64,000 bases of DNA. It comes from an uncultured Clostridia bacterium (GTDB lineage Bacteria; Bacillota; Peptococcia; Peptococcales; Peptococcaceae). Location of the stretch: NCBI GenBank assembly GCA_944391625.1, contig CALXUG010000001.1, positions 62,001-126,000 of the forward strand, given 5' to 3'. Below, piece after piece: positions 27,262 to 48,240 of this stretch. Numbering within the stretch: position 1 is the first letter of the stretch; the number at the start of each line of letters is the position of its first letter. A program made the translations under genes and the position numbers. The notes beneath the pieces were generated by a model. The model had not been told where the DNA came from. It made no database searches and saw nothing but the letters and a program-made list of their open reading frames with translations.

Positions 27262-28707
27262 TTATACAACAAACAACATATTTAATAATGGAATCATACA
27301 AACCGTTACAATTAGCGTCACTACCAAGAATAATAAACCAAACAGATAAGCATCTTTTCTTACCATAGTTTCATGCCCAAATACCAGACCAGCCATCATA
27401 CTGCCAGCCGGTGTCACATAAGCACACATCAAAGCAATATACATCAGGAAGAAACAGGTGTATGGATTACCACCCATATCCATTACAATTGGTGGAATCA
27501 TCGGCAGGAAAATGGCACCCATGACGATATTATGCATAAACTGCGTAATCACCGCTAAGAAAATCATAGACGCAATGATCAGCACAGTTACATCCAGATT
27601 CATTAAAATCGGCGTAATAGTTGCTGCAATGGTAGCTGTAATACCCACGTCTGCCGACTCCATCGCATCGGCTAACGGATACGTAACAGCCAGCAGCATC
27701 AGCATTGCCCATGGCAATTTGTTAAAACAATCTGCCAAGTTAATAATTGCCTTTCCATTCTCATCCTTCCACATAACAAATACTATCATATAAAGGATAC
27801 TCCAGCCAATTACACCCAAACTATTACAAAACGCAGCACCCGGTAAAGTAGGTACGATTTGCGGCAACATTAATACCAGAAAATAAACAACAATTAACAA
27901 CAACCCTGCTTTCTGATATCGATTCATCTTATATTTTGCATATTCTTCACAGAGTTCCTCTGTTGTTGTATAATGCTCAGCATCAATCTTCAATATAAAC
28001 CGACCTGCCAAAAGCATAAGCACAGTGGTCACAGTAATATAAATCATCCCTGCCAACAGCATAGGGCCAGCTGGAACGGTTAAACCAATACCTTTGGTGA
28101 AAAATCCGCTGTATAAAATGACGCCGCCGTAAAATGGCACCATATTCGGCACTGTAAACGCAATATACACAATAAAAGCAATTACCATATTCAACACTTT
28201 TGAACCCGGTTTATAACCGCTGATTTCACCAATCTTCAATGCAATTGTCCATAACAGGAATACACAAGCAATCCCACCATTTCCCAGACTCATCAAAAAA
28301 GCACAGGCACACAGTGCAGAAATCAGCAACCAAGGCTTGCCAATAAAGACTTTTTTACTTAACAGCCAATAAGCGATTCCTTCCGTGACACCAATTTGAT
28401 TTAAACATTCTGCAAAGGCAGCCCCCAACAATACCATCAAAAATGTTGGATTACCAAATCCGCTGGCCAAAACTGTAGTAGCAGGTGCATAACCAGTCAT
28501 GGTTAATACGGCAAAACCAAAAAAGCTTACCCATAATAAATCAATAAAAATCCAGCCGTAAATAATGCCTAAAAAGCAACCCAGCACTTTCATACCAATT
28601 TCTGTAATCTGACCAAAGGGTGGTAGAAACCCTACACCGAACATTAAAATTAACATAATCGCAATATGCAAATATTGTATCGCATTCTTTTTTATTGTGT
28701 CGCTCAT
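27262..28707 (-). CDS. DASS/SLC13-type anion permease
   Basis: The protein has 481 residues with about a dozen membrane spans. The overall pattern matches the divalent anion:Na+ symporter/arsenical pump superfamily. There is a re-entrant, glycine-rich loop (GFGNPTFLMVLLGAAF), a central charged cytoplasmic loop around residues 250-275 (HYTTTEELCEEYAKYKMNRYQK), and a second half with ITQFMHNIVMGAIFLPMIPPI and YVTPAGSMMAG. The TPAG stretch resembles the Ser/Asn-Thr-Pro substrate sites of DASS carriers. Likely substrates are dicarboxylates, sulfate or phosphate-like anions. It lies downstream of the AlkP-type hydrolase on the same strand, which suggests that it imports or exports that enzyme's substrate or product. 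Confidence 0.75.
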   Translation of the reverse strand: MSDTIKKNAIQYLHIAIMLILMFGVGFLPPFGQITEIGMKVLGCFLGIIYGWIFIDLLWVSFFGFAVLTMTGYAPATTVLASGFGNPTFLMVLLGAAFAECLNQIGVTEGIAYWLLSKKVFIGKPWLLISALCACAFLMSLGNGGIACVFLLWTIALKIGEISGYKPGSKVLNMVIAFIVYIAFTVPNMVPFYGGVILYSGFFTKGIGLTVPAGPMLLAGMIYITVTTVLMLLAGRFILKIDAEHYTTTEELCEEYAKYKMNRYQKAGLLLIVVYFLVLMLPQIVPTLPGAAFCNSLGVIGWSILYMIVFVMWKDENGKAIINLADCFNKLPWAMLMLLAVTYPLADAMESADVGITATIAATITPILMNLDVTVLIIASMIFLAVITQFMHNIVMGAIFLPMIPPIVMDMGGNPYTCFFLMYIALMCAYVTPAGSMMAGLVFGHETMVRKDAYLFGLLFLVVTLIVTVCMIPLLNMLFVV

Positions 28708-28852
28708 AATACATCCTCCTTTTGTTCATTTTTTGGCAATAATCATCAATTTTATAAATAGTATCCCGTATGAAATCAAATTCAAAATAATAACAAGGGT
28801 TATCGCAAACATAATCATATACAAATTTTTTTACTTTTTTATGATGCTTGCG

Positions 28853-28886
28853 AGAAGCATTACAAAACCATGTTTGTTATGCTTCT
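28853..28886 (-). other. Hairpin between hydrolase and permease genes
   Basis: AGAAGCAT and ATGCTTCT arms, extended by an inner ACAAA/TTTGT stem, form a strong hairpin with no U-run after it. It may be an mRNA processing or stability element separating expression of the two genes, or a weak terminator. The rest of 28708-28957 shows nothing. Confidence 0.45.
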
Positions 28887-28957
28887 GCCCGCAAGATCCA
28901 AAAACAGTATTAGTTAAACTGTCATCAATGAATTGTGGAACGCCATTACATACAAAC

Positions 28958-30964
28958 TTATTCCAAAATCTGATATACAGGAGCGCCTTCACACTGTTCC
29001 GGCATACGAACTCCAAGCAAAGTAGCAATGGTAGGTGTTACGTCAATGGTACGAATCACGCGCTCTGTTTCAAAATCTTCTTTGATTCCTTTTCCGGCAG
29101 CAACAAAAATTGGAGAAACGGTACTGCCATGCAGCCCATGTAAAGTAGGCAGCGAATCACCGTGTAGACGATTGAAACCTTCTTCGATCCAATATATAAT
29201 ATCGCCGCATTCATCACCGCTCATACCCACAATTTCTGCTTCTTTATTCCGCATTGCTACAGAAACAACCCGTTTACCTTCTGCATTGCGGTAGTTATAC
29301 AAATCACTGATAATCTGTGTTTCCAATTCATATTTATCTGCCGGATCTACAATACCGTGCTCATTGCGGCCTTTCAAATTAATATGAATATGATTGCCGC
29401 GGTTGGCTACTGCTCTTGTTTTGCTGTAATCAATTTCCCGCATTTCATTTCCATTTTCATCCCGTTTCAATACAGTATAGCCTAATTCTTCCATAACGCG
29501 GATATTACAGCCAAAGCCGTCGCCCAGCAGAGGAATTTCATCTTCCGGCGGAACCAACAAACCATGGTCAGAAATCAACAAAATTGTCCAACCTTCATCC
29601 AGATAGTGCAGGAAAGAACCTACATAGTTATCTGTGCAGCGATACGCCCATTCAATGGCATCTTCATACAACGCACCATGATTGCCAATAGCAGGTCTGT
29701 CTTTACTCAAATACCAGAACAGATGACCACAAGCATCCACATTGTGCAGATGAGAGAATACTACATCATACTGTTCTTCTGCAATCAAATGCTGCATTGC
29801 ATCTGCCTGCCACTGACTATAAATATCCCAGCAAGGCAGCAATACCGATTTTACCAAACTCTCGTTACGTGCTTCACTCATAGAAGTTCCTGGTACTGGG
29901 CCAACCGCTTCAATCACACTTTTCTTCAGAGATTTTGGATGCCACAGCAAATCTTTCGCAATATCTTTCGCAGCACCAATCCACAAACGAACCTGACTGC
30001 CATCTTCTGCAATTTCCAACAACCGCATATGACGATTTACCTTTATCATGCCATCATCGTTACTCAACTCATCCAATACGTTTGGCACAAATTCATCGGC
30101 TAAAACAGCCATTGGTTCTTCTGCTTTTTTATTTTTATAAACAGCCACACGATCATATTGTCCTGCTTCATTACACAAAATCAGCGCCGGACGTTTGGTC
30201 ATACCGTTATTCACCAAAATGGTAAATTCTTTTGCACCGGCTGGTACAGGATATTCCCAATGTGCTGGCTCCGTAATCGGAGAATTTACAATATCCACCG
30301 GCAGCATATCAGCAGAGGTATCGCCTTCCGCCTCACTGAAGATTAAGTTCACCATTTCTTCCGCATTGCCATAATCAGATTCACTGCCACTGTCATAGGT
30401 TTCTTCTGTTGGCACATCGTTGATAACGCAACCGGCACCGGAAGTGTTTGGCACTTTTGCTTTAAACAGTACTTTTTCAACATCGGTAGAAGCAAACACC
30501 AATTTGTCATCATCTACAACACAATCTCCATTGCCGATTGCATTTGGCTGAGTGCCATCTACTACATGCAGATTGGGATTGTCGGAGCTTGGCGGCCAAG
30601 AACTGCCCGGCCAGTGCCATACCAATGTTTTTAAGCCCGCTTCCACTGTTACATTCCAGAGCTGCTCTGCTTTACATTTGTGAGAATTCAAATTATACAC
30701 AAATGTAGCCATATCTTTTTTGGACTGTCCCCAGAAACAAGTAATTCCATGGGTAGCCGGTGTGGCACCTGTTGCCAACGATGTCCACATTGGCGGTGTA
30801 ATGGTTGGCACACCACCCAGCATGCGCAAATCTTTACGAGCACTTCCCCGTTTAATCAGCTTGTCAAAATTAGGCATAATACCTTCTGCTCGAAACCGAT
30901 TGGTCAAGCCCGGATCCAAACCATCCACGCCTAAAACCAAAATTTTGTTGCTTTTTGCTGTCAT
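28958..30964 (-). CDS. Alkaline-phosphatase-superfamily phosphohydrolase (COG3379-like)
   Basis: The protein has 668 residues from ATG 30964, with GGAGGAGG upstream. The N-terminus ILVLGVDGLDPGL carries the first metal-binding Asp. TITPPMWTSLATGATPATHGITCFWG holds the Thr nucleophile region and the typical ATG-x(3)-HGI motif. Further metal ligands are in HNVDACGHLFW and LLISDHGLLVP, and GLHGSTVSPIFVAAGKGI closes the fold. This family cleaves phosphate or phosphonate mono- or diesters. Despite the superfamily there is no signal peptide, so it is cytoplasmic. It is transcribed divergently from a LysR regulator and is followed by an anion permease, which together suggest an inducible utilisation locus. 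Confidence 0.85.
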   Translation of the reverse strand: MTAKSNKILVLGVDGLDPGLTNRFRAEGIMPNFDKLIKRGSARKDLRMLGGVPTITPPMWTSLATGATPATHGITCFWGQSKKDMATFVYNLNSHKCKAEQLWNVTVEAGLKTLVWHWPGSSWPPSSDNPNLHVVDGTQPNAIGNGDCVVDDDKLVFASTDVEKVLFKAKVPNTSGAGCVINDVPTEETYDSGSESDYGNAEEMVNLIFSEAEGDTSADMLPVDIVNSPITEPAHWEYPVPAGAKEFTILVNNGMTKRPALILCNEAGQYDRVAVYKNKKAEEPMAVLADEFVPNVLDELSNDDGMIKVNRHMRLLEIAEDGSQVRLWIGAAKDIAKDLLWHPKSLKKSVIEAVGPVPGTSMSEARNESLVKSVLLPCWDIYSQWQADAMQHLIAEEQYDVVFSHLHNVDACGHLFWYLSKDRPAIGNHGALYEDAIEWAYRCTDNYVGSFLHYLDEGWTILLISDHGLLVPPEDEIPLLGDGFGCNIRVMEELGYTVLKRDENGNEMREIDYSKTRAVANRGNHIHINLKGRNEHGIVDPADKYELETQIISDLYNYRNAEGKRVVSVAMRNKEAEIVGMSGDECGDIIYWIEEGFNRLHGDSLPTLHGLHGSTVSPIFVAAGKGIKEDFETERVIRTIDVTPTIATLLGVRMPEQCEGAPVYQILE

Positions 30965-31179
30965 AAAAAATCCTCCTCCATAAAAAACAATGACAATCAA
31001 TTAATTTTCCTTATGTATTTAATTTACGTCAGCTAGTGCCTTTTGTCTAACAGATGAAATCTGGCGCATCTTTTTCGTACCAAACTTTTTTTGTTGCAAC
31101 ATGTTCCGTTTTATGGTACTGTTAGAAGCATTATGAGTTATATTGTTTTTATTTTGTTTTTCTAGAAAGGTAATCCATC
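30965..31179. promoter_or_regulatory. Divergent control region between hydrolase and LysR genes
   Basis: The 215-base region holds a possible LysR-gene promoter (plus strand TTGCAA at 31094-31099, 17-base spacer, TACTGT). It also has palindromic pieces: GTACCA (31077-31082) facing TGGTAC (31114-31119), and GTTGCAAC. LysR proteins usually bind such divergent regions. The exact site is inferred. Confidence 0.45.
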
Positions 31180-32121
31180 ATGAAAACAGAACAGATCATT
31201 TATTTGAATGACATCGCTAAAACACACTCTATTACACAAACAGCGCAGCGATTTTTTATCAGCCAGCAGGCACTTAGTTTTTCCCTAAAAAAATTAGAAG
31301 AAGAATTTGATACCATTTTCCTGAACCGCACCAACCAAGGAGTTACTTTAACGCAAGAAGGAAGTAATTTTTTGCACAAAGCACAACCCATTTTGGACAT
31401 TTACAATGAACTCAAAGATGATTTTCAATTTCATGCTATTCCTGAATACAAAGAAGAGTTACCCTCTGGTACATTGCAGGTATTAGGCCACACCAGAGTG
31501 TTGGAACCTTTACTGATGGACATTTTTGAATCCTACTGCCGCAAATATCCTCAAATTCAAATAAGTTTGCAGGAAGATGAAAACATTGCAATCATTGATG
31601 CTATCTCGCAAGGAAACGCTGATTTTGGTGTTATTTTTGCTCCAGAACCATTATTAAGCGAACAAACTGTCTCTCTCCAATACCAACTTCCAGAAAATGT
31701 ACAGATTGAAAATTTATTTTCCGATGAATTTATCGTCTGCTGCAACTGCAACCATCCACTTGCCCAAGAAAAAAATATTGAACTGGAAACTCTAGTTGAC
31801 ACCGTGGTTGTGCAATTTGATACCAATGTCATTATGCAAAATATCGGCATCAAATTCCCGGAGCAATCTAAAACACATCGTTTCTTTTCCAACAATGTAT
31901 CGTTTCATAAGGCTATGATTCGGCGCGGGTTGGCAATCTCTGTTATCACAGCATTTGAATTCCGCAAACTGTATTTCAAACACAAAGATTTAACCGCTCT
32001 TCCCATCAGCAACGGCTGTAAGTCTGTGATCTCTATTGTCACAAATCAAGATCGCCCACTTTCCGCTGCTGCACAATTATTTATTCGAATGCTGAGAAAA
32101 TATGACTTCTATAGTTTGTAA
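31180..32121 (+). CDS. LysR-family transcriptional regulator
   Basis: The protein has 313 residues, slightly above the usual 300. The N-terminal winged HTH is clear: ITQTAQRFFISQQALSFSLKKLEEEFDTIFLNRTNQGVTLTQEG. The effector-binding domain begins near residue 95 (GTLQVLGHTRVLEPLLMDIF), with a periplasmic-binding-protein-like fold to the end. It probably controls the divergent hydrolase/permease genes in response to their substrate. That link rests on position only. A terminator hairpin lies 90 bases downstream. Confidence 0.92.
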   Translation: MKTEQIIYLNDIAKTHSITQTAQRFFISQQALSFSLKKLEEEFDTIFLNRTNQGVTLTQEGSNFLHKAQPILDIYNELKDDFQFHAIPEYKEELPSGTLQVLGHTRVLEPLLMDIFESYCRKYPQIQISLQEDENIAIIDAISQGNADFGVIFAPEPLLSEQTVSLQYQLPENVQIENLFSDEFIVCCNCNHPLAQEKNIELETLVDTVVVQFDTNVIMQNIGIKFPEQSKTHRFFSNNVSFHKAMIRRGLAISVITAFEFRKLYFKHKDLTALPISNGCKSVISIVTNQDRPLSAAAQLFIRMLRKYDFYSL

Positions 32122-32351: not shown

Positions 32352-33488
32352 CTACCGTCTTTTCTTGGCCTGGTCATGGCGCACCAGTTTTTCATAATAC
32401 AAATCCATGGTCAACGGTGCATTGTACAAGATTGTCAGCAAATAGCCGTACACATTTTGTACCTTGCTGGTGTTGTACTGCAAATATTCCAATACATATT
32501 CAATATGGCCGCTGTCCAGTTGTAACAACTGCTCCTTCACATCGTCCATGCGGCGCTCTCTGCCGCCTACTTTGACCACTGTATTATCGTCACTGTTCAT
32601 GGCATCAGCAATGATAGTGACCATCGTCTTGATGGCAGACTGGTTGTGTGGATAACTTTCTAACAGCCAGTCATATTCCAATTGCTCCTGCACCATGGTT
32701 TTCCAACTGCGGGGCGCAGCCTCCCCCTCCTCTTTTTTATTTCGCTCAGTATAACTTCTCTCAGTCTTATTACCTCGTACTTTTTCCGTATCCAGAGTCG
32801 TAAAAGTTCCGTGTCTGCAATCGGAATTTTTACGATTCACTGGGCATAGCTGTACCTGCAAATCGTTCTGTTCATATTCTGTAGCAAAAGCAGTACCATC
32901 ATTTTGATTTGCTGCATGATTGTTATCGGCCCAATTATTTGTTTGATTATTGATTCGCTTTTCTATTTGATAATCGTTATTTTTCTGCATCTGGTCATTG
33001 TTAGATGCTTTTGCATCATCAGCAATTCTTTCTGTTGGATTGTTTGTGCAGCTGTATGCCCGATACATGGTTCCGCTCTGCCGTTGCTGCTGCTTTCTGA
33101 GCCGACGCTTGGATATTACCGGTTCACTCTGCTGAATGTGTTTCACATAAATCAGACTGGGCTTGCCCAATCCCTGCCGCCGACGCACAATCAAATCGCT
33201 CTGTTCCAGTTCCCGCAACAATTTGGTGGCAGTTTTGTCGGAACAGCTAAAGTCTTCCATCAGTTCTTCTAAAGTGTAAATGATAAAAACTTTACCGCTG
33301 GCATCGCACCAGTCATTTTTGCTGGACAGGCTCATGCGGTCCAACAAAATGCCGTACAATAATTTGGCTTCCATGCTAACATGCTGATAGTGCACACCTT
33401 TGATTAATGCTTTGGGAATGCGGTAGAAGGTGTATTGATCCTGCTGGTTTTGGTAGAAATATTGGTTGGATGTAGTTGTGGTTGTCAT
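32352..33488 (-). CDS. RepA_N-type replication initiator protein (plasmid-like)
   Basis: The protein has 378 residues from ATG 33488, with AGGAGGAG upstream. The N-terminal about 120 residues match the RepA_N domain of low-GC Gram-positive theta plasmids and integrative elements: FYRIPKALIKGVHYQHVSMEAKLLYGILLDRMSLSSKN, then a winged helix EELMEDFSCSDKTATKLLRELEQSDLIVRRRQGLGKPSLIYV. A low-complexity Asn/Gln-rich linker follows (residues about 170-260). A C-terminal domain (LLESYPHNQSAIKTMVTIIADAMN ... YVLEYLQYNTSKVQNVYGYLLTILYNAP) resembles the domain at the end of such initiators. No ParA, relaxase or integrase is nearby, so it looks like an orphan from an integrated plasmid or element. Confidence 0.85.
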   Translation of the reverse strand: MTTTTTSNQYFYQNQQDQYTFYRIPKALIKGVHYQHVSMEAKLLYGILLDRMSLSSKNDWCDASGKVFIIYTLEELMEDFSCSDKTATKLLRELEQSDLIVRRRQGLGKPSLIYVKHIQQSEPVISKRRLRKQQQRQSGTMYRAYSCTNNPTERIADDAKASNNDQMQKNNDYQIEKRINNQTNNWADNNHAANQNDGTAFATEYEQNDLQVQLCPVNRKNSDCRHGTFTTLDTEKVRGNKTERSYTERNKKEEGEAAPRSWKTMVQEQLEYDWLLESYPHNQSAIKTMVTIIADAMNSDDNTVVKVGGRERRMDDVKEQLLQLDSGHIEYVLEYLQYNTSKVQNVYGYLLTILYNAPLTMDLYYEKLVRHDQAKKRR

Positions 33489-33642
33489 AGTAATCTCCTC
33501 CTGAATATGAATGAAAAAAGTTGCTTTCACTACTCAGGAGAAAAACAGGCAAAAACCGGCTACCTAAAATGAAAAAAATTTTGCAAAAGTCCATAAATAC
33601 AATTTATAGTTCCGGCAACATGCCATTTAGAGGGAAAAAAGA

Positions 33643-33693
33643 AAGACAGAAAAAGATGACAACTTTTTAAAAATCATCATCTTTTTCTGTCTT
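33643..33693. terminator. Perfect 17-bp inverted repeat upstream of repA
   Basis: AAGACAGAAAAAGATGA (33643-33659) and its complement (33677-33693) surround a 17-base A/T loop. It could be a bidirectional terminator separating repA from the surface-protein cassette, or an origin-associated structure. There is no U-run beyond the arms. Confidence 0.5.
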
Positions 33694-33782: not shown

Positions 33783-33938
33783 GCTCATCCGGGCGGAACG
33801 CCATTTGCCTTTTCTTCCGTAGTCTGGACAGCGGCTGGTCTGTTCCTCTCGGCCGGACAAGGCTGTCCGCCTCGATGGGAACAGCCTGCGCCCCGATCCA
33901 TCCTAAGTCGGAAGGCGTGCAAAGGCATTTCTGCCCTG
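33783..33938 (+). ncRNA. Structured inverted-repeat element, copy A (unknown family)
   Basis: This copy is homologous to the reverse complement of 38041-38190, and a 97-base core (33816-33912) has only 8 differences and no gap. Read on the plus strand it folds as nested stems: 33791-33798 with 33929-33936, 33804-33808 with 33919-33923, 33815-33819 with 33909-33913, 33825-33828 with 33897-33900, 33840-33846 with 33878-33884, and an apical GGACA-AGGC-TGTCC hairpin at 33855-33868. Several differences from copy B keep pairing. A possible promoter is TTGTTT-N17-ATAATT upstream. It may be a non-coding RNA or a foldable end of a mobile element, and the orientation of function is not proven. Confidence 0.6.
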
Positions 33939-34023
33939 ATACACTGTGTGGCAAATGATTGTTTGTGTATTCTTCAATTTGAGCAAACTATCTTCTGCTT
34001 GCCGCCGGTATGTTAAGCGCACA

Positions 34024-34056
34024 AAAGGGCTGAGCGAAATTTCGCCCAACCCTTTG
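34024..34056 (-). terminator. Terminator of the surface-protein gene
   Basis: On the minus strand AAAGGG-TTG-GGCGAAATTTCGC-TCAG-CCCTTTT forms a long G-U tolerant hairpin ending in TTTT. A second perfect hairpin (CGACAATCA, 34068-34094) precedes it directly after the stop codon and has no U-run. Confidence 0.75.
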
Positions 34057-34113
34057 CTGTTCTCTGTTCGACAATCATCATTGCTGATTGTCGGTAAACA
34101 AATACTTAATTGC

Positions 34114-37100
34114 TTAATTCAATTTTCTGCGTGTGATTGCCAAACCAATTACAGCAGCTGCCATCAGTCCAACCAGACCAACTACCGGAGCAGCATCACC
34201 GGTTTTTGGAGCATCGCCCAGCGGAACTTCCGGTTCATCTATTTCCACTTCTTCCCCAGGCACGTCAGTCAGAGGAACTTCCGGTTCATCAATATCAATA
34301 GTCGGTTCCTCCGGCAAGTCCGGTTCGGTCAGCGGTACATCCGGATCGGGAATATCCACTGTTGGTTTATCCGGATCTGGATCAGGATTCGGTCCTGGGC
34401 CTGGACCATCTTCATCAACCTTATAACTTACGGTTGGTTTCTGGAATTCTTCTGGCTCACTCTCACCTCCATTAGAATCCACTGGATATAAAATGGCACG
34501 ACTGTTGGTATATAAACCAAAATCTAAACTACCATCATTTTTGCTACCATCGTTATCATAATTACCGTAAGTACCTTCTTCACTCTTTGGATTCATTAAC
34601 TGAACAGTATAAGTCAGCTGAACCGGAGTAAATTTACTTACTGGAACATTGATAGTCCAAACAAAATGTTCTGTTATAGTTTTATCACCAGCAATGTACT
34701 CTACAACATAATCATATTCGCCAACATTTGGAGCAAAACCATATTTGTTTTCATCAATTTTTTCTGCTTTGTATTCAGTATCGCCAACTTTTAATGTCAT
34801 TGCAGATGCATCATTAATGAAATCAAAGTTGTAGTCATCTGCTACATAGCCAATGTAGTCATCTACAGTAGAATCAGCGTCTAACAGATAATAAATATCG
34901 TTCTGAATTGTGGTAAAGTCAACCATTTCTCCACCAGCCAGATAGTCCATGAAGGATGGACCCCATTTATTTGCTGTTCCTGTCGTATCAGTTGCATTCA
35001 TAGCATAACAATGATATCCTTCCGCTACAGCAGCTTGATATTCCATATAAGTCAAGTATAATGCTTTATCAACAGAGTTTGCATACATGGATTTTTTTTC
35101 TACGGGTGTCGCATTTACACTGGTACCACCATACGGATATTCGTACTGCGTTCCCTGCTGATTTACTTGCGCTTTTACGGTCTTTAACCACGACATCCAA
35201 TCTGCTGGTGGCTCATTAGTAGCATATTTGGAATTCCAATTCTCTGGGCCTGCAAATTTTTGTACGCTGTCTCCCTGCCAACTCCACGCAGTTGCGGTTG
35301 GTTCGGCATTATACATGTAGGTAATCCCGTCGCTGACAAAAATCAAATATTTACGGTCCGCCTGTACGGTTACGTCTTTATCTAACATTGCTTTCCCGGC
35401 TAATAAACCGGCATGGGTATTAGTACCACTACTAATATCTTGTTTTATAGCAGCTTCAATATCAACATACTGTGTTGCTAAATCTAAAAATTCTGTTGCA
35501 TGCGCTTCTTTATTAAAAATAACCACGCCAACTTTTACTTTTGCATTGGTATCTTTAATCTGTTCTTTCAGCTTGGTTAACATATTTAATGCCTGTTCTT
35601 CCAAGTCAGCGCTTGTGGATTTATCCAATACAAATACCACATCTGTGACAAGTTCTTCTTCCGCTGCTGGTAACGATAATGTTACTTTCGACTGGAAGTT
35701 TTTATCCAAATTCGTAGCGGTTTTCGATTTAGAAATTTCCCAATCCATAGGCGGAATTACTGGCACTTCTTCTGGTGCTAACCCATGTGCCGCTTTCAGT
35801 GCTTTCTTAGTTTCCAATACAGCGCTTACATCTTTGGCTACAGGATATAACACTACATAATTCTCTTCATAATTTTCTGCATCTGCTTCCCAGCGATTAT
35901 TTTCGTTATCATCATACCAACCGTCAATGGCATGAGCTTCGTTATTACAGTCTAAACCATCTTTATTGCCATCTAATGCCCAATCATCACCAGTCGCACC
36001 GAAAATGATTGTAGCATTATCGGCATTATAGATATCGTCGCCAGCTACAGCAGCGTGATTATTATATACTTTAGCATTTTTATTCAAACAAACATTGCCA
36101 ATGTTACTTATCCCGCCGCCTTTACCAGTATTATATTTCCCCGTTATTGTTAATTCATTTTGAATTACACTAACATTACTGGTTTCATCTTGACTTAACA
36201 AACCAGAAACATAAATTCCACCTTGTTTATTATTTTCAACAATTAAATTCGAGTTATTTTGAATTTTAAATAACACAGAACTAGGATCTGTACTTAGTTT
36301 TACCACTAACGCAGATCTTCCTGACGTTTCAATTCCTCCACAATTTTGAATTTTCAAAGTAGAATTATCAATAAGAGAATCTCCATCTAAATTCACACCA
36401 ATATTCCCACATTCATTTAATTCCATTGTAGAATCATACATATGCAATGTGCCATTTGTAAATCCATGGTTATTAACTTTGTCCATTTTCAAAACCGACT
36501 TTTTCATAACCGTGTCTGATTCATTCATTCCAATAGCACGCAAATTTTTTACACTTATCGTTGAATTATCAATATTTGATTTACTATTTACAATAAATCT
36601 ACTTGTATTGTCTATTTCGATATTGGCATTAGTAATATTAATTTCAGTTGTCTTATAATCACTATAAAAAGCATCACCAGTTCCTGAAGTATTCAATACT
36701 TTAAAATTCCCACCATTTATATTAACAATACCTTCATTGTAGATAGCTGTATAAGTTTCATTTCCGCCAATCAAAACATTACAATTTTCAAAATTAAGTG
36801 TTCCTGTTGCTTTAATTGTAAATGTCTCTCCAGAAGCTATTTGTTCTTCTGACACAATGTTCCCATTTTTAAATGTAAGTTTACCACCTACACCAAACCC
36901 TTCGCTATACCATTCATCTTTTGTATAAGTTCTACCGATTGACAGTGTATTACCATTTAAATCTAATGTAATATCACTATTTTCATTATTCATAAATAGA
37001 AAATCGGAAGTAACATTATCTAATAATTTTATCTCAACAGGTTGAGCACTATTTTTCGCCACTTCATAAGCAGTATTTAATGCTTCATACTGTTCATCAT

Positions 37101-37554
37101 CAATCATTGCCACAGTTGTCTCTGCTATCTCTGTTTCTTTTGCTACAGTACCGATAGCAGTCACAGATTCAGTTCCATCATCAGGTGTCAATGTGGCAGT
37201 AATTGTCTGTCCTGCTACTAATGTAACACCAGGTAATGTTGTTGTATAAACTACTGTTTCATCTTCTAAAGTGATTTCTACAGTTGCAACTGCTTCACCC
37301 TGAGTAACATCACCAATAGTCCATTGAACCATTCCAGCGGTTGTAAATTGCGCTGTTACGTCAAATAAGCCTGCTTTTTCAATTATTGTCTCTGTCCCAC
37401 CAATTAATGTAATTGGCGTAGCAACTTCTGGTGTTGGCTCACTGCCTCCATCCCCTTCTGCAAATACACTCATTGGCATGATGGTCAGCAGCATGGCTAA
37501 CACCAGCAGAATGGCAATATGCTTTTTTGTTTTGCCCTGTTTTTCAAATCTCAT
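34114..37554 (-). CDS. Large VWA-domain surface protein with sortase-type anchor
   Basis: The protein has 1146 residues. A signal peptide with a basic N-region (KKHIAILLVLAMLLTIMPMSVFA) is followed by an Ig-like/beta region. Residues about 170-560 form an Asn-rich stretch of short beta repeats (ITLDLNGNTLSIG, GTLNFENCNVLIGG, IVNINGGNF) that looks like a parallel beta-helix. A von Willebrand A domain starts near residue 635 with a complete MIDAS: VFVLDKSTS, the Thr in SGTNT, and FVSDG. After a Pro/Asp/Glu-rich stalk with DEPEVPL repeats comes a sorting signal DAPKTGD, a hydrophobic span and RRKLN. It is probably a wall-anchored adhesin or pilus-tip-like protein. No sortase gene is in the window. 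AT-rich base use in the beta-helix part suggests transfer. Confidence 0.85.
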   Translation of the reverse strand: MRFEKQGKTKKHIAILLVLAMLLTIMPMSVFAEGDGGSEPTPEVATPITLIGGTETIIEKAGLFDVTAQFTTAGMVQWTIGDVTQGEAVATVEITLEDETVVYTTTLPGVTLVAGQTITATLTPDDGTESVTAIGTVAKETEIAETTVAMIDDEQYEALNTAYEVAKNSAQPVEIKLLDNVTSDFLFMNNENSDITLDLNGNTLSIGRTYTKDEWYSEGFGVGGKLTFKNGNIVSEEQIASGETFTIKATGTLNFENCNVLIGGNETYTAIYNEGIVNINGGNFKVLNTSGTGDAFYSDYKTTEINITNANIEIDNTSRFIVNSKSNIDNSTISVKNLRAIGMNESDTVMKKSVLKMDKVNNHGFTNGTLHMYDSTMELNECGNIGVNLDGDSLIDNSTLKIQNCGGIETSGRSALVVKLSTDPSSVLFKIQNNSNLIVENNKQGGIYVSGLLSQDETSNVSVIQNELTITGKYNTGKGGGISNIGNVCLNKNAKVYNNHAAVAGDDIYNADNATIIFGATGDDWALDGNKDGLDCNNEAHAIDGWYDDNENNRWEADAENYEENYVVLYPVAKDVSAVLETKKALKAAHGLAPEEVPVIPPMDWEISKSKTATNLDKNFQSKVTLSLPAAEEELVTDVVFVLDKSTSADLEEQALNMLTKLKEQIKDTNAKVKVGVVIFNKEAHATEFLDLATQYVDIEAAIKQDISSGTNTHAGLLAGKAMLDKDVTVQADRKYLIFVSDGITYMYNAEPTATAWSWQGDSVQKFAGPENWNSKYATNEPPADWMSWLKTVKAQVNQQGTQYEYPYGGTSVNATPVEKKSMYANSVDKALYLTYMEYQAAVAEGYHCYAMNATDTTGTANKWGPSFMDYLAGGEMVDFTTIQNDIYYLLDADSTVDDYIGYVADDYNFDFINDASAMTLKVGDTEYKAEKIDENKYGFAPNVGEYDYVVEYIAGDKTITEHFVWTINVPVSKFTPVQLTYTVQLMNPKSEEGTYGNYDNDGSKNDGSLDFGLYTNSRAILYPVDSNGGESEPEEFQKPTVSYKVDEDGPGPGPNPDPDPDKPTVDIPDPDVPLTEPDLPEEPTIDIDEPEVPLTDVPGEEVEIDEPEVPLGDAPKTGDAAPVVGLVGLMAAAVIGLAITRRKLN

Positions 37555-37661
37555 ACTTCTTTCCCCCTTGTGATTCTGTGCGGCCTTTCAAACCTAATTG
37601 TTCCGGCCGACAGCATTGTATTTCTATCCAAATTTCTATTATCGTTTATACAAACTGTCAT
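37551..37661 (-). CDS. 36-residue upstream ORF overlapping the surface-protein start
   Basis: An ATG with an excellent site (GCAGGAGGTGACGG) opens 36 codons (MTVCIND at the start, RGKEV at the end). The TGA stop overlaps the surface-protein ATG as ATGA. The peptide is basic and matches nothing I know. The arrangement looks like a leader peptide or coupling ORF that delivers ribosomes to the large gene. The latter has its own GGGGGA site within the uORF. Confidence 0.45.
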   Translation of the reverse strand: MTVCINDNRNLDRNTMLSAGTIRFERPHRITRGKEV

Positions 37662-37715
37662 CCGTCACCTCCTGCTTTTTGCCTCGTTCAGAAATCTATA
37701 CATTTCTAAACACAC

Positions 37716-37757
37716 AAAAAAAGCCGCTATGTAGTACTACATGTACTACACAACGAC
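37716..37757 (-). terminator. Attenuator-like terminator in the surface-protein leader
   Basis: On the minus strand GTCGTTGTGTAGTAC and GTACTACATAGCGGC pair along all 15 positions (with G-U pairs) around ATGTA, followed by seven T. It lies between the predicted promoter (37861) and the upstream ORF, so the transcript must read through it or start after it. Confidence 0.75.
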
Positions 37758-37860
37758 TAAATATGTACAAAAAAATGCAATTCAAAAATGTATAGTTTTT
37801 AAACTTTCAGGCATAAACATTTTAAAAAACTGACTACCAGTTCAGTTCTATATAGTTATC

Positions 37861-37869
37861 ATTATAACA
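37861..37869 (-). promoter_or_regulatory. Extended -10 promoter of the surface-protein cassette
   Basis: Minus strand TGTTATAAT is an extended -10 element. The -35 region is weak. Transcription would begin near 37854, giving a leader of about 300 bases that contains the terminator and the upstream ORF. Confidence 0.55.
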
Positions 37870-38040
37870 AAGAATGGTTACACTTTTGTTACATTTCACC
37901 AATTTTCTTATTAAAATAGTTTTTATAAAAATTTATTATATATTTTGTATAGCACTCCAATGAAAGCCTTCTATGACAAAAACTGCTTGTTGTTTTCGTG
38001 AAGGTTTCGCAGACAAATTTTTTCTTTATCAACATCTCAC

Positions 38041-38190
38041 CAGGCAGACTATCATTGCACGCGTTCCGACTTAGGATGGACTGGGGCGCAGACTGTTCTC
38101 ATCGAGGCGGACAGACTTGTCCGGCCAAGAAGAACAGACCAGCCACTGTCCAGACTACGGAGGGGGCGGCAATGGTAGTTCTGCCTGAGC
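38041..38190 (-). ncRNA. Structured inverted-repeat element, copy B (unknown family)
   Basis: The minus-strand reading matches copy A at 33783-33938. The same stems form: AGGCAGA/TCTGCCT (38186-38180 with 38048-38042), CATTGC/GCAATG, TCCG/CGGA, TGGAC/GTCCA, CTGTTCT/AGAACAG and GGACA-AGTC-TGTCC. Relative to copy A, one base pair changes from G-C to A-U in the outermost stem, one from U-A to A-U in the second stem, and one from C-G to U-A in the central stem. Such covariation supports selection on structure. Both copies point inward toward the surface-protein gene. Confidence 0.6.
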
Positions 38191-47989: not shown

Positions 47990-48240
47990 TAAAAAAAGCT
48001 AAAGGAAAAAACATCCTTTAGCTATAGTTATAGAGTGGCCCCTTATCCCCCCAATACGATAGCTCAACAACAGCTGCCTGGGTGCAACTGTTGACAGTCC
48101 TGTACCTATTTGATACAGCCCCAGCCTGTTATTGCAGGACAATGACAGACTTCGGCGAAAATTCCTTTTATACTGTTTCTTTGATTTCCTGGAACCTCCT
48201 CAGTACTACTAATAATTTCCGCGCCTCTACCCTATCTTAA
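47990..48240 (-). promoter_or_regulatory. Lysine riboswitch (L-box) with terminator, upstream of dapB
   Basis: The minus-strand leader contains the L-box landmarks in order: TAGAGGCGCGG, TTAGTAGTACTGAGGAGG, CGCCGAAG and GGCTGGGGCTG. A terminator hairpin (AGCTAAAGGA/TCCTTTAGCT at 48023-47997) with a run of seven or more T follows. When lysine binds, the terminator should form and shut off dapB-asd-dapA. Confidence 0.93.

What the first reader, a model, noticed from the sequence alone, without database searches (positions are those of the whole stretch)
33783..38190. Inverted pair of about 150-base structured elements with compensatory changes flanking a surface-protein cassette
Seen in the sequence: 33783-33938 and the reverse complement of 38041-38190 are homologous, with a gap-free 97-base core (33816-33912 versus 38161-38065) at 89/97 identity. 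Both copies fold into the same nested stem set. Three pairs differ in a compensatory way. The outermost stem goes from G33791-C33936 to A-U. The second stem goes from U33804-A33923 to A-U in the opposite sense. The central stem goes from C33846-G33878 to U-A. Independent drift would break pairs, so selection on the fold is likely. Candidates are a new non-coding RNA family present in two copies, or foldable ends of a non-autonomous mobile element that carries the surface-protein gene. I do not recognise the family.
Basis: partly seen in the sequence, partly recalled or inferred. Interest (0 to 1): 0.85.

Follow-up and report, generated by a model that had tools for sequence, protein, structure and literature searches.

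The report
Genus-wide mobile hairpin repeat family
The two mirror-image hairpins are members of a previously uncatalogued family of about 145-base repeats, present in roughly a hundred copies in this gut bacterium and in every sampled relative of its genus, whose folded shape is strongly preserved while the sequence changes; in the relatives the copies often sit inside the hairpins that end genes.

Summary
In detail: 33791-33936 and 38042-38186 are inverted homologues (89/97 in the core), fold alike and show compensatory changes. The pair is not special to the surface-protein gene. A covariance model finds 91 distinct copies in fetched parts of this genome and copies in all 8 sampled species of the genus, but none in 38 genomes of 29 other genera of the class. 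Across copies 56 of 57 pairs carry two-sided changes; the internal loops are the conserved part. One strand is the folding strand (G-U exceeds A-C). No Rfam family matches. In relatives the copies avoid promoters and often lie at the apex of locus-specific, terminator-like palindromes; at one orthologous terminator one species has the plain hairpin and two others carry the element inside it. This supports a small non-autonomous mobile element, selected for its fold, that inserts at gene ends. The mobilising enzyme is unknown: no IS200/REP transposase is present here, and reverse transcriptase and IS110 are not genus-wide. The reading 'ends of a transposon carrying the surface gene' is not supported. 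Whether the fold acts as RNA or single-stranded DNA is open.

The parts
33791..33936 (-). Copy A of the hairpin element (subfamily T4); the model (folding) strand is the minus strand
   Evidence: CM match 142.3 bits, full length 1-145; 93% identical to the copy on contig C30
38042..38186 (+). Copy B of the hairpin element (subfamily T4), inverted relative to copy A
   Evidence: CM match 160.7 bits, full length; 93% over 156-161 nt to the copies on C20 and C45, flanks included
34114..37554 (-). Surface-protein gene between the two copies: von Willebrand A domain and an LPXTG-type anchor
   Evidence: PF13519/PF00092 over cut-off; NF033073 LPXTG_double below cut-off; only its anchor region has DNA relatives in the genus
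32352..33530 (-). RepA_N + DUF6017 gene; a 1.3-kb module repeated in this genome that carries a T4 element upstream
   Evidence: PF06970 and PF19481 over cut-off; 6 long copies and 5 remnants in the genome; all T4 copies lie near such a gene or remnant
33645..33691 (.). Palindrome upstream of RepA_N, part of the repeated RepA_N module
   Evidence: Conserved in 5 of 6 module copies

Best explanation
The two sequences are copies of a genus-specific small interspersed repeat: a ~145-nt imperfect hairpin that is a non-autonomous mobile element. Shown: about a hundred dispersed intergenic copies; subfamilies that amplified separately in each species; presence/absence at orthologous sites; stems that covary while internal loops (UUCCGA / GAGGGA, CGCAG / CAAGG, CGUGG / CAAAG) stay conserved; one strand as the folding strand; and, in relatives, a position at the apex of terminator-like palindromes at gene ends. 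Inferred: the folded single strand is recognised through its conserved internal loops by an unidentified trans-acting enzyme, which copies it preferentially into existing hairpins, where the host terminator stem is kept and the damage is small. Also inferred: once inserted, the element becomes part of the 3' hairpin of the neighbouring mRNA. In this genome four subfamilies (T1-T4) have spread; T4, the window type, has spread together with a repeated RepA_N module.
For: 91 copies in this genome and 9-70 scored hits in every genus member. Covariation 0.535 and 0.579 against at most 0.10 when slid. Presence/absence: G003 has the plain terminator AAAAAGCAGAACAAATTATTTGTTCTGCTTTTT where G004 and G005 carry an element between GCAGAAC and GTTCTGC, and the G005 element at L236:12558 is absent from the syntenic G004 leader. 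Flanking palindrome extension in relatives has mean score 5.63 against 2.86 +/- 0.19 with flanks re-paired at random; 35 of 79 copies are strong against 9.5 expected. A-rich sequence precedes and T-rich sequence follows. Gene context in relatives is (+,-) 32, (+,+) 23, (-,-) 10, (-,+) 1. G-U against A-C in well-paired columns is 102:29 in relatives and 101:45 in this genome. Changes private to one copy among near neighbours include 24 two-sided Watson-Crick swaps, 25 to G-U and 30 broken.
Against: No mobilising enzyme is found: Y1 transposase is absent here, and RT and IS110 are not genus-wide. No target-site duplication or shared terminal repeat was seen. In this genome the extended palindrome is absent (1.28 against 1.21). 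Relatives are mostly incomplete draft assemblies. Block exchange between subfamilies can mimic two-sided changes. A5 and A6 were aligned with the model and lean towards it.
Confidence: 0.7

Rival explanations
1. A functional RNA family kept in place: 3'-UTR hairpins (or small RNAs) whose fold is selected because a cellular protein or nuclease acts on the RNA, with copying a side effect.
For: Sense orientation is favoured between co-directional genes in relatives (23 against 10) and promoter regions are avoided. The strand bias is as for RNA. The orthologous pair L273/L224 differs by compensatory changes.
Against: In this genome orientation shows no such bias (17 against 29). Orthologous sites are often empty or hold a different subfamily. 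G-T wobble also favours one strand of folded DNA.
Confidence: 0.3
2. The two copies are the ends of a composite or non-autonomous transposon that carries the surface-protein gene.
For: Inverted orientation around one gene; the segment is absent downstream of trmD in relatives; a gene flanked by inverted copies also occurs in G005.
Against: The copies are from two sub-branches (A with C30, B with C20/C45). No second copy of the cassette exists. The relatives' locus differs in more than this segment. Element density alone makes such pairs common.
Confidence: 0.05
3. T4 is an origin or regulatory hairpin of a RepA_N replicon integrated several times, and the other subfamilies derive from it.
For: All six T4 copies in this genome lie within about 5 kb of a RepA_N gene or remnant, usually upstream.
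Against: RepA_N has no tblastn match in any of the relatives' element loci, and the great majority of copies here are not near RepA_N.
Confidence: 0.08
4. Ordinary palindromic repeats (REP/BIME type) or chance long hairpins.
For: Intergenic, palindromic, high copy number.
Against: Length 145 nt with conserved internal loops; no Y1 transposase in this genome; no matches in 38 genomes of other genera; covariation.
Confidence: 0.02

Closest known systems
SPRITE, BOX and RUP repeats of Streptococcus pneumoniae (PMC3049150, read)
   Same: Species- or genus-restricted interspersed repeats, intergenic, hairpin-forming when transcribed; SPRITE is terminator-like with AAAA...TTTT ends and enriched at 3' ends; BOX is modular.
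   Different: No sequence or Rfam relation found; here the ends differ between subfamilies while internal loops are conserved, stems covary throughout, and copies in relatives lie inside locus-specific terminator-like palindromes.
Correia/NEMIS and ERIC elements and other prokaryotic MITEs (PMC10969869, read)
   Same: Small non-autonomous repeats that fold in transcripts and affect neighbouring mRNAs.
   Different: MITEs are defined by terminal inverted repeats and direct repeats of the target; neither is found here.
attC sites of integrons, including VCR (PMC3053210, read)
   Same: Folded single strand, structure conserved over sequence, imperfect palindrome of up to 141 bp.
   Different: No RYYYAAC/GTTRRRY cores (only AAC...GTT at 13 of 78 ends), no cassette arrays; the conserved part is internal.
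Group IIC introns, which insert next to terminator or attC hairpins (PMC7923331, read)
   Same: Target preference for terminator hairpins.
   Different: 145 nt with no intron domain recognised by Rfam; reverse transcriptase absent from most genus members.
REP/REPIN with TnpA-REP (PMC8266576, PMC2817692, PMC3116915; abstracts only)
   Same: Abundant intergenic palindromes.
   Different: REPs are 20-40 bp (PMC3733652 abstract); the Y1 transposase is absent from this genome.

Membership tests
Any Rfam 15 family | Score at or above the family's gathering cut-off | tested here: not met
   only a lysine riboswitch elsewhere in the window; no hit on the elements
MITE | Terminal inverted repeats shared between copies | tested here: not met
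   Outer stems differ between subfamilies; conserved parts are internal
MITE | Target-site duplication | tested here: inconclusive
   None evident at the one filled/empty terminator compared
MITE | Non-autonomous, dispersed, presence/absence polymorphic | tested here: met
REP/REPIN | Y1 (TnpA-REP) transposase in the genome | tested here: not met
   PF01797 absent in G000 and in 7 of 8 genus genomes
Integron attC | RYYYAAC and GTTRRRY core sites at the ends | tested here: not met
Integron attC | Cassette arrays with an IntI integrase | not tested
   Copies are dispersed, not in arrays of cassettes; integrase not searched
SPRITE-like terminator element | Hairpin with A-tract and T-tract at 3' ends of genes | tested here: inconclusive
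   Met for many copies in relatives, not for copies of this genome
Group IIC intron | Intron-encoded reverse transcriptase available in the genus | tested here: not met
   PF00078 absent in 5 of 8 genus genomes (those five are less complete)
IS110 with bridge RNA | IS110 transposase accompanying the structured RNA | tested here: not met
   4 copies in G000, none over cut-off in 5 of 8 genus genomes; one IS110 lies near the C45 copy

The most novel reading that the evidence does not exclude
A new kind of mobile element that is recognised and targeted by structure: a folded ~145-nt hairpin, maintained by compensatory evolution, that moves into the apex of intrinsic terminator hairpins by an unknown enzyme, leaving the terminator stem intact.
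Probability: 0.3. Interest if true: 0.8.

Novelty: new variant of a known kind. Interest (0 to 1): 0.6.

Why it matters
Most bacterial interspersed repeats are recognised by sequence at their ends. Here the ends and stems drift while the fold and internal loops are kept, so the fold itself appears to be what the mobilising or host machinery reads. The family supplies about a hundred natural variants per genome with which to find the protein that reads it, and the terminator insertion sites make it testable whether elements can use terminator hairpins as targets. It also adds an abundant, unannotated structured family to a gut-bacterial genus.

Tried and rejected
RepA_N as general mobiliser: linked to T4 in this genome only; no match in relatives' element loci. 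An apparent RepA_N start downstream of the G001 elements (L268, L270) was a different small protein. IS200/REP transposase, IS110 and reverse transcriptase as the shared mobiliser: not genus-wide. attC identity from AAC...GTT at the ends: 13 of 78 only. Rfam at relaxed thresholds: only matches far below gathering scores, mostly to microRNA families in AT-rich hairpins outside the elements. T4 on plasmids and phages by DNA similarity: none; exact T4 and T2 motifs in viral contigs: none. Elements near trmD in named relatives: none in 106 kb. One weak match outside the class (G347, 46 bits) was not followed and may be chance.

Full report
Observation. The inverted pair is real. Core identity is 89/97 and the arms 33792-33922 and 38055-38185 are the only inverted repeat of at least 40 nt in the window. 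Both fold into one long nested hairpin.

Copies in this genome. A DNA search found close copies on contigs C30, C20 and C45 and a copy with an internal deletion on C2. A covariance model built from five copies (R1) found 89 matches at E<=0.01 in this genome, with 150 of 363 candidates scored, nearly all full length. After fetching loci, 91 distinct copies of this genome entered the analysis. They fall into subfamilies that share the internal loops but have different outer stems: T1 (AAGGCTGGCC...), T2 (GAGGGCAATATC...), T3 (CAGGGAGATG...) and T4 (window type). Outer and inner modules are shuffled between copies. T1 and T3 usually sit head to head with a ~15-nt linker.

Distribution. With the second model (R2) all 8 genus genomes are positive, with 9-70 hits each (70 candidates scored per genome), and 38 genomes of 29 other genera in the class are negative, five of them in the same family. 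A thinner phylum sample gave one weak match outside the genus. The host is a Peptococcaceae-related gut bacterium; the nearest named record by TrmD is Peptococcaceae bacterium RGIG6463 from sheep rectum, 84%.

Fold. On the model-based alignment of the first set 56 of 57 pairs have two-sided changes, 87% of cells pair, and covariation is 0.535 against 0.06-0.09 with partners slid. For relatives it is 0.579 against at most 0.10 (that alignment also holds opposite-strand matches). These alignments lean towards the structure, so single sequences were folded without it: median z is about -8, with a median of 70-75% of the consensus pairs in the unconstrained MFE fold. G-U exceeds A-C 102:29 and 101:45 in well-paired columns, and the model strand is the more stable in 86/91 and 71/80 copies, though strand assignment by the model is partly circular. 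Among near neighbours, pairs with private changes were 24 two-sided Watson-Crick, 25 to G-U and 30 broken; block exchange between subfamilies can produce some of the first class.

Sites. In relatives the elements avoid divergent intergenic regions: (+,-) 32, (+,+) 23, (-,-) 10, (-,+) 1. Their hairpins continue outward into locus-specific complementary flanks: mean score 5.63 against 2.86 +/- 0.19 for re-paired flanks, 35 of 79 strong against 9.5. A-rich sequence lies before and T-rich sequence after, as in intrinsic terminators used in both directions, e.g. aaaaaaGCAGAAC[element]GTTCTGCttttttt (L236:7316). At one syntenic site G003 has the plain terminator AAAAAGCAGAACAAATTATTTGTTCTGCTTTTT, while G004 and G005 carry an element between GCAGAAC and GTTCTGC; a second G005 element, in a gene leader, is absent from G004. 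The copies in this genome show no such extension.

The window. All six T4 copies lie near a RepA_N + DUF6017 gene or its remnant; this gene is itself repeated. Copy B shares flanks with C20 and C45; copy A groups with C30. In G003, G004, G005 and G007 trmD is followed by another gene, not by this segment. The surface gene is not found elsewhere apart from its anchor region. With about 90-100 copies in 2.97 Mb, pairs a few kilobases apart are expected, so the 'cassette' needs no special explanation. G005 does show another gene between inverted copies, which is worth watching.

Mechanism. Presence/absence, amplification of separate subfamilies and dispersal show mobility. Compensatory change with conserved loops shows that the fold is selected. 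Insertion into existing hairpins suggests structure-aware targeting (inferred). No enzyme was identified: Y1 transposase is missing here, IS110 and RT are not genus-wide, and RepA_N is not near the relatives' copies.

Known relatives. The nearest analogues in behaviour are pneumococcal SPRITE/BOX (PMC3049150), Correia/ERIC-type MITEs (PMC10969869), attC sites (PMC3053210) and group IIC introns that target terminator stem-loops (PMC7923331). None is matched by sequence where tested, and tested defining features of MITEs, attC, REP and group IIC introns are not met. I therefore file it as a new variant of bacterial small interspersed repeats.

Noticed in passing
Own genome, e.g. G000:C1:46934, C4:57133, C16:19109; flanks: The T1/T3 composite repeats carry a parS-like palindrome TGTTTCACGTGAAACA at the T3 end; 72 sites (<=1 mismatch) occur genome-wide, about 20 of the 50 listed within ~350 bp of an element, plus a cluster of 11 on contig C27. 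Dispersed parS-like sites on a repeat could matter for ParB loading.
   Followed up: partly
Window 32352-33530 and G000 contigs C28, C20, C45, C2, C67: A RepA_N + DUF6017 gene with a conserved upstream palindrome is repeated six times, with five remnants, in the draft chromosome.
   Followed up: partly
L015:3372-4610: An IS110-family transposase gene lies between RepA_N and the T4 element on contig C45.
   Followed up: partly
L236:7316-9250 (G005): A gene missing from the syntenic place in G004 and G003 is bracketed by two inverted element copies, each in its own terminator-like palindrome.
   Followed up: partly
window 48052-48237 (-): Lysine riboswitch, 113 bits.
   Followed up: no
window 27262-32121 and L014:2413-7613: A transporter, type I phosphodiesterase and LysR gene block next to RepA_N recurs as a diverged paralogue beside the C20 RepA_N copy.
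   Followed up: no
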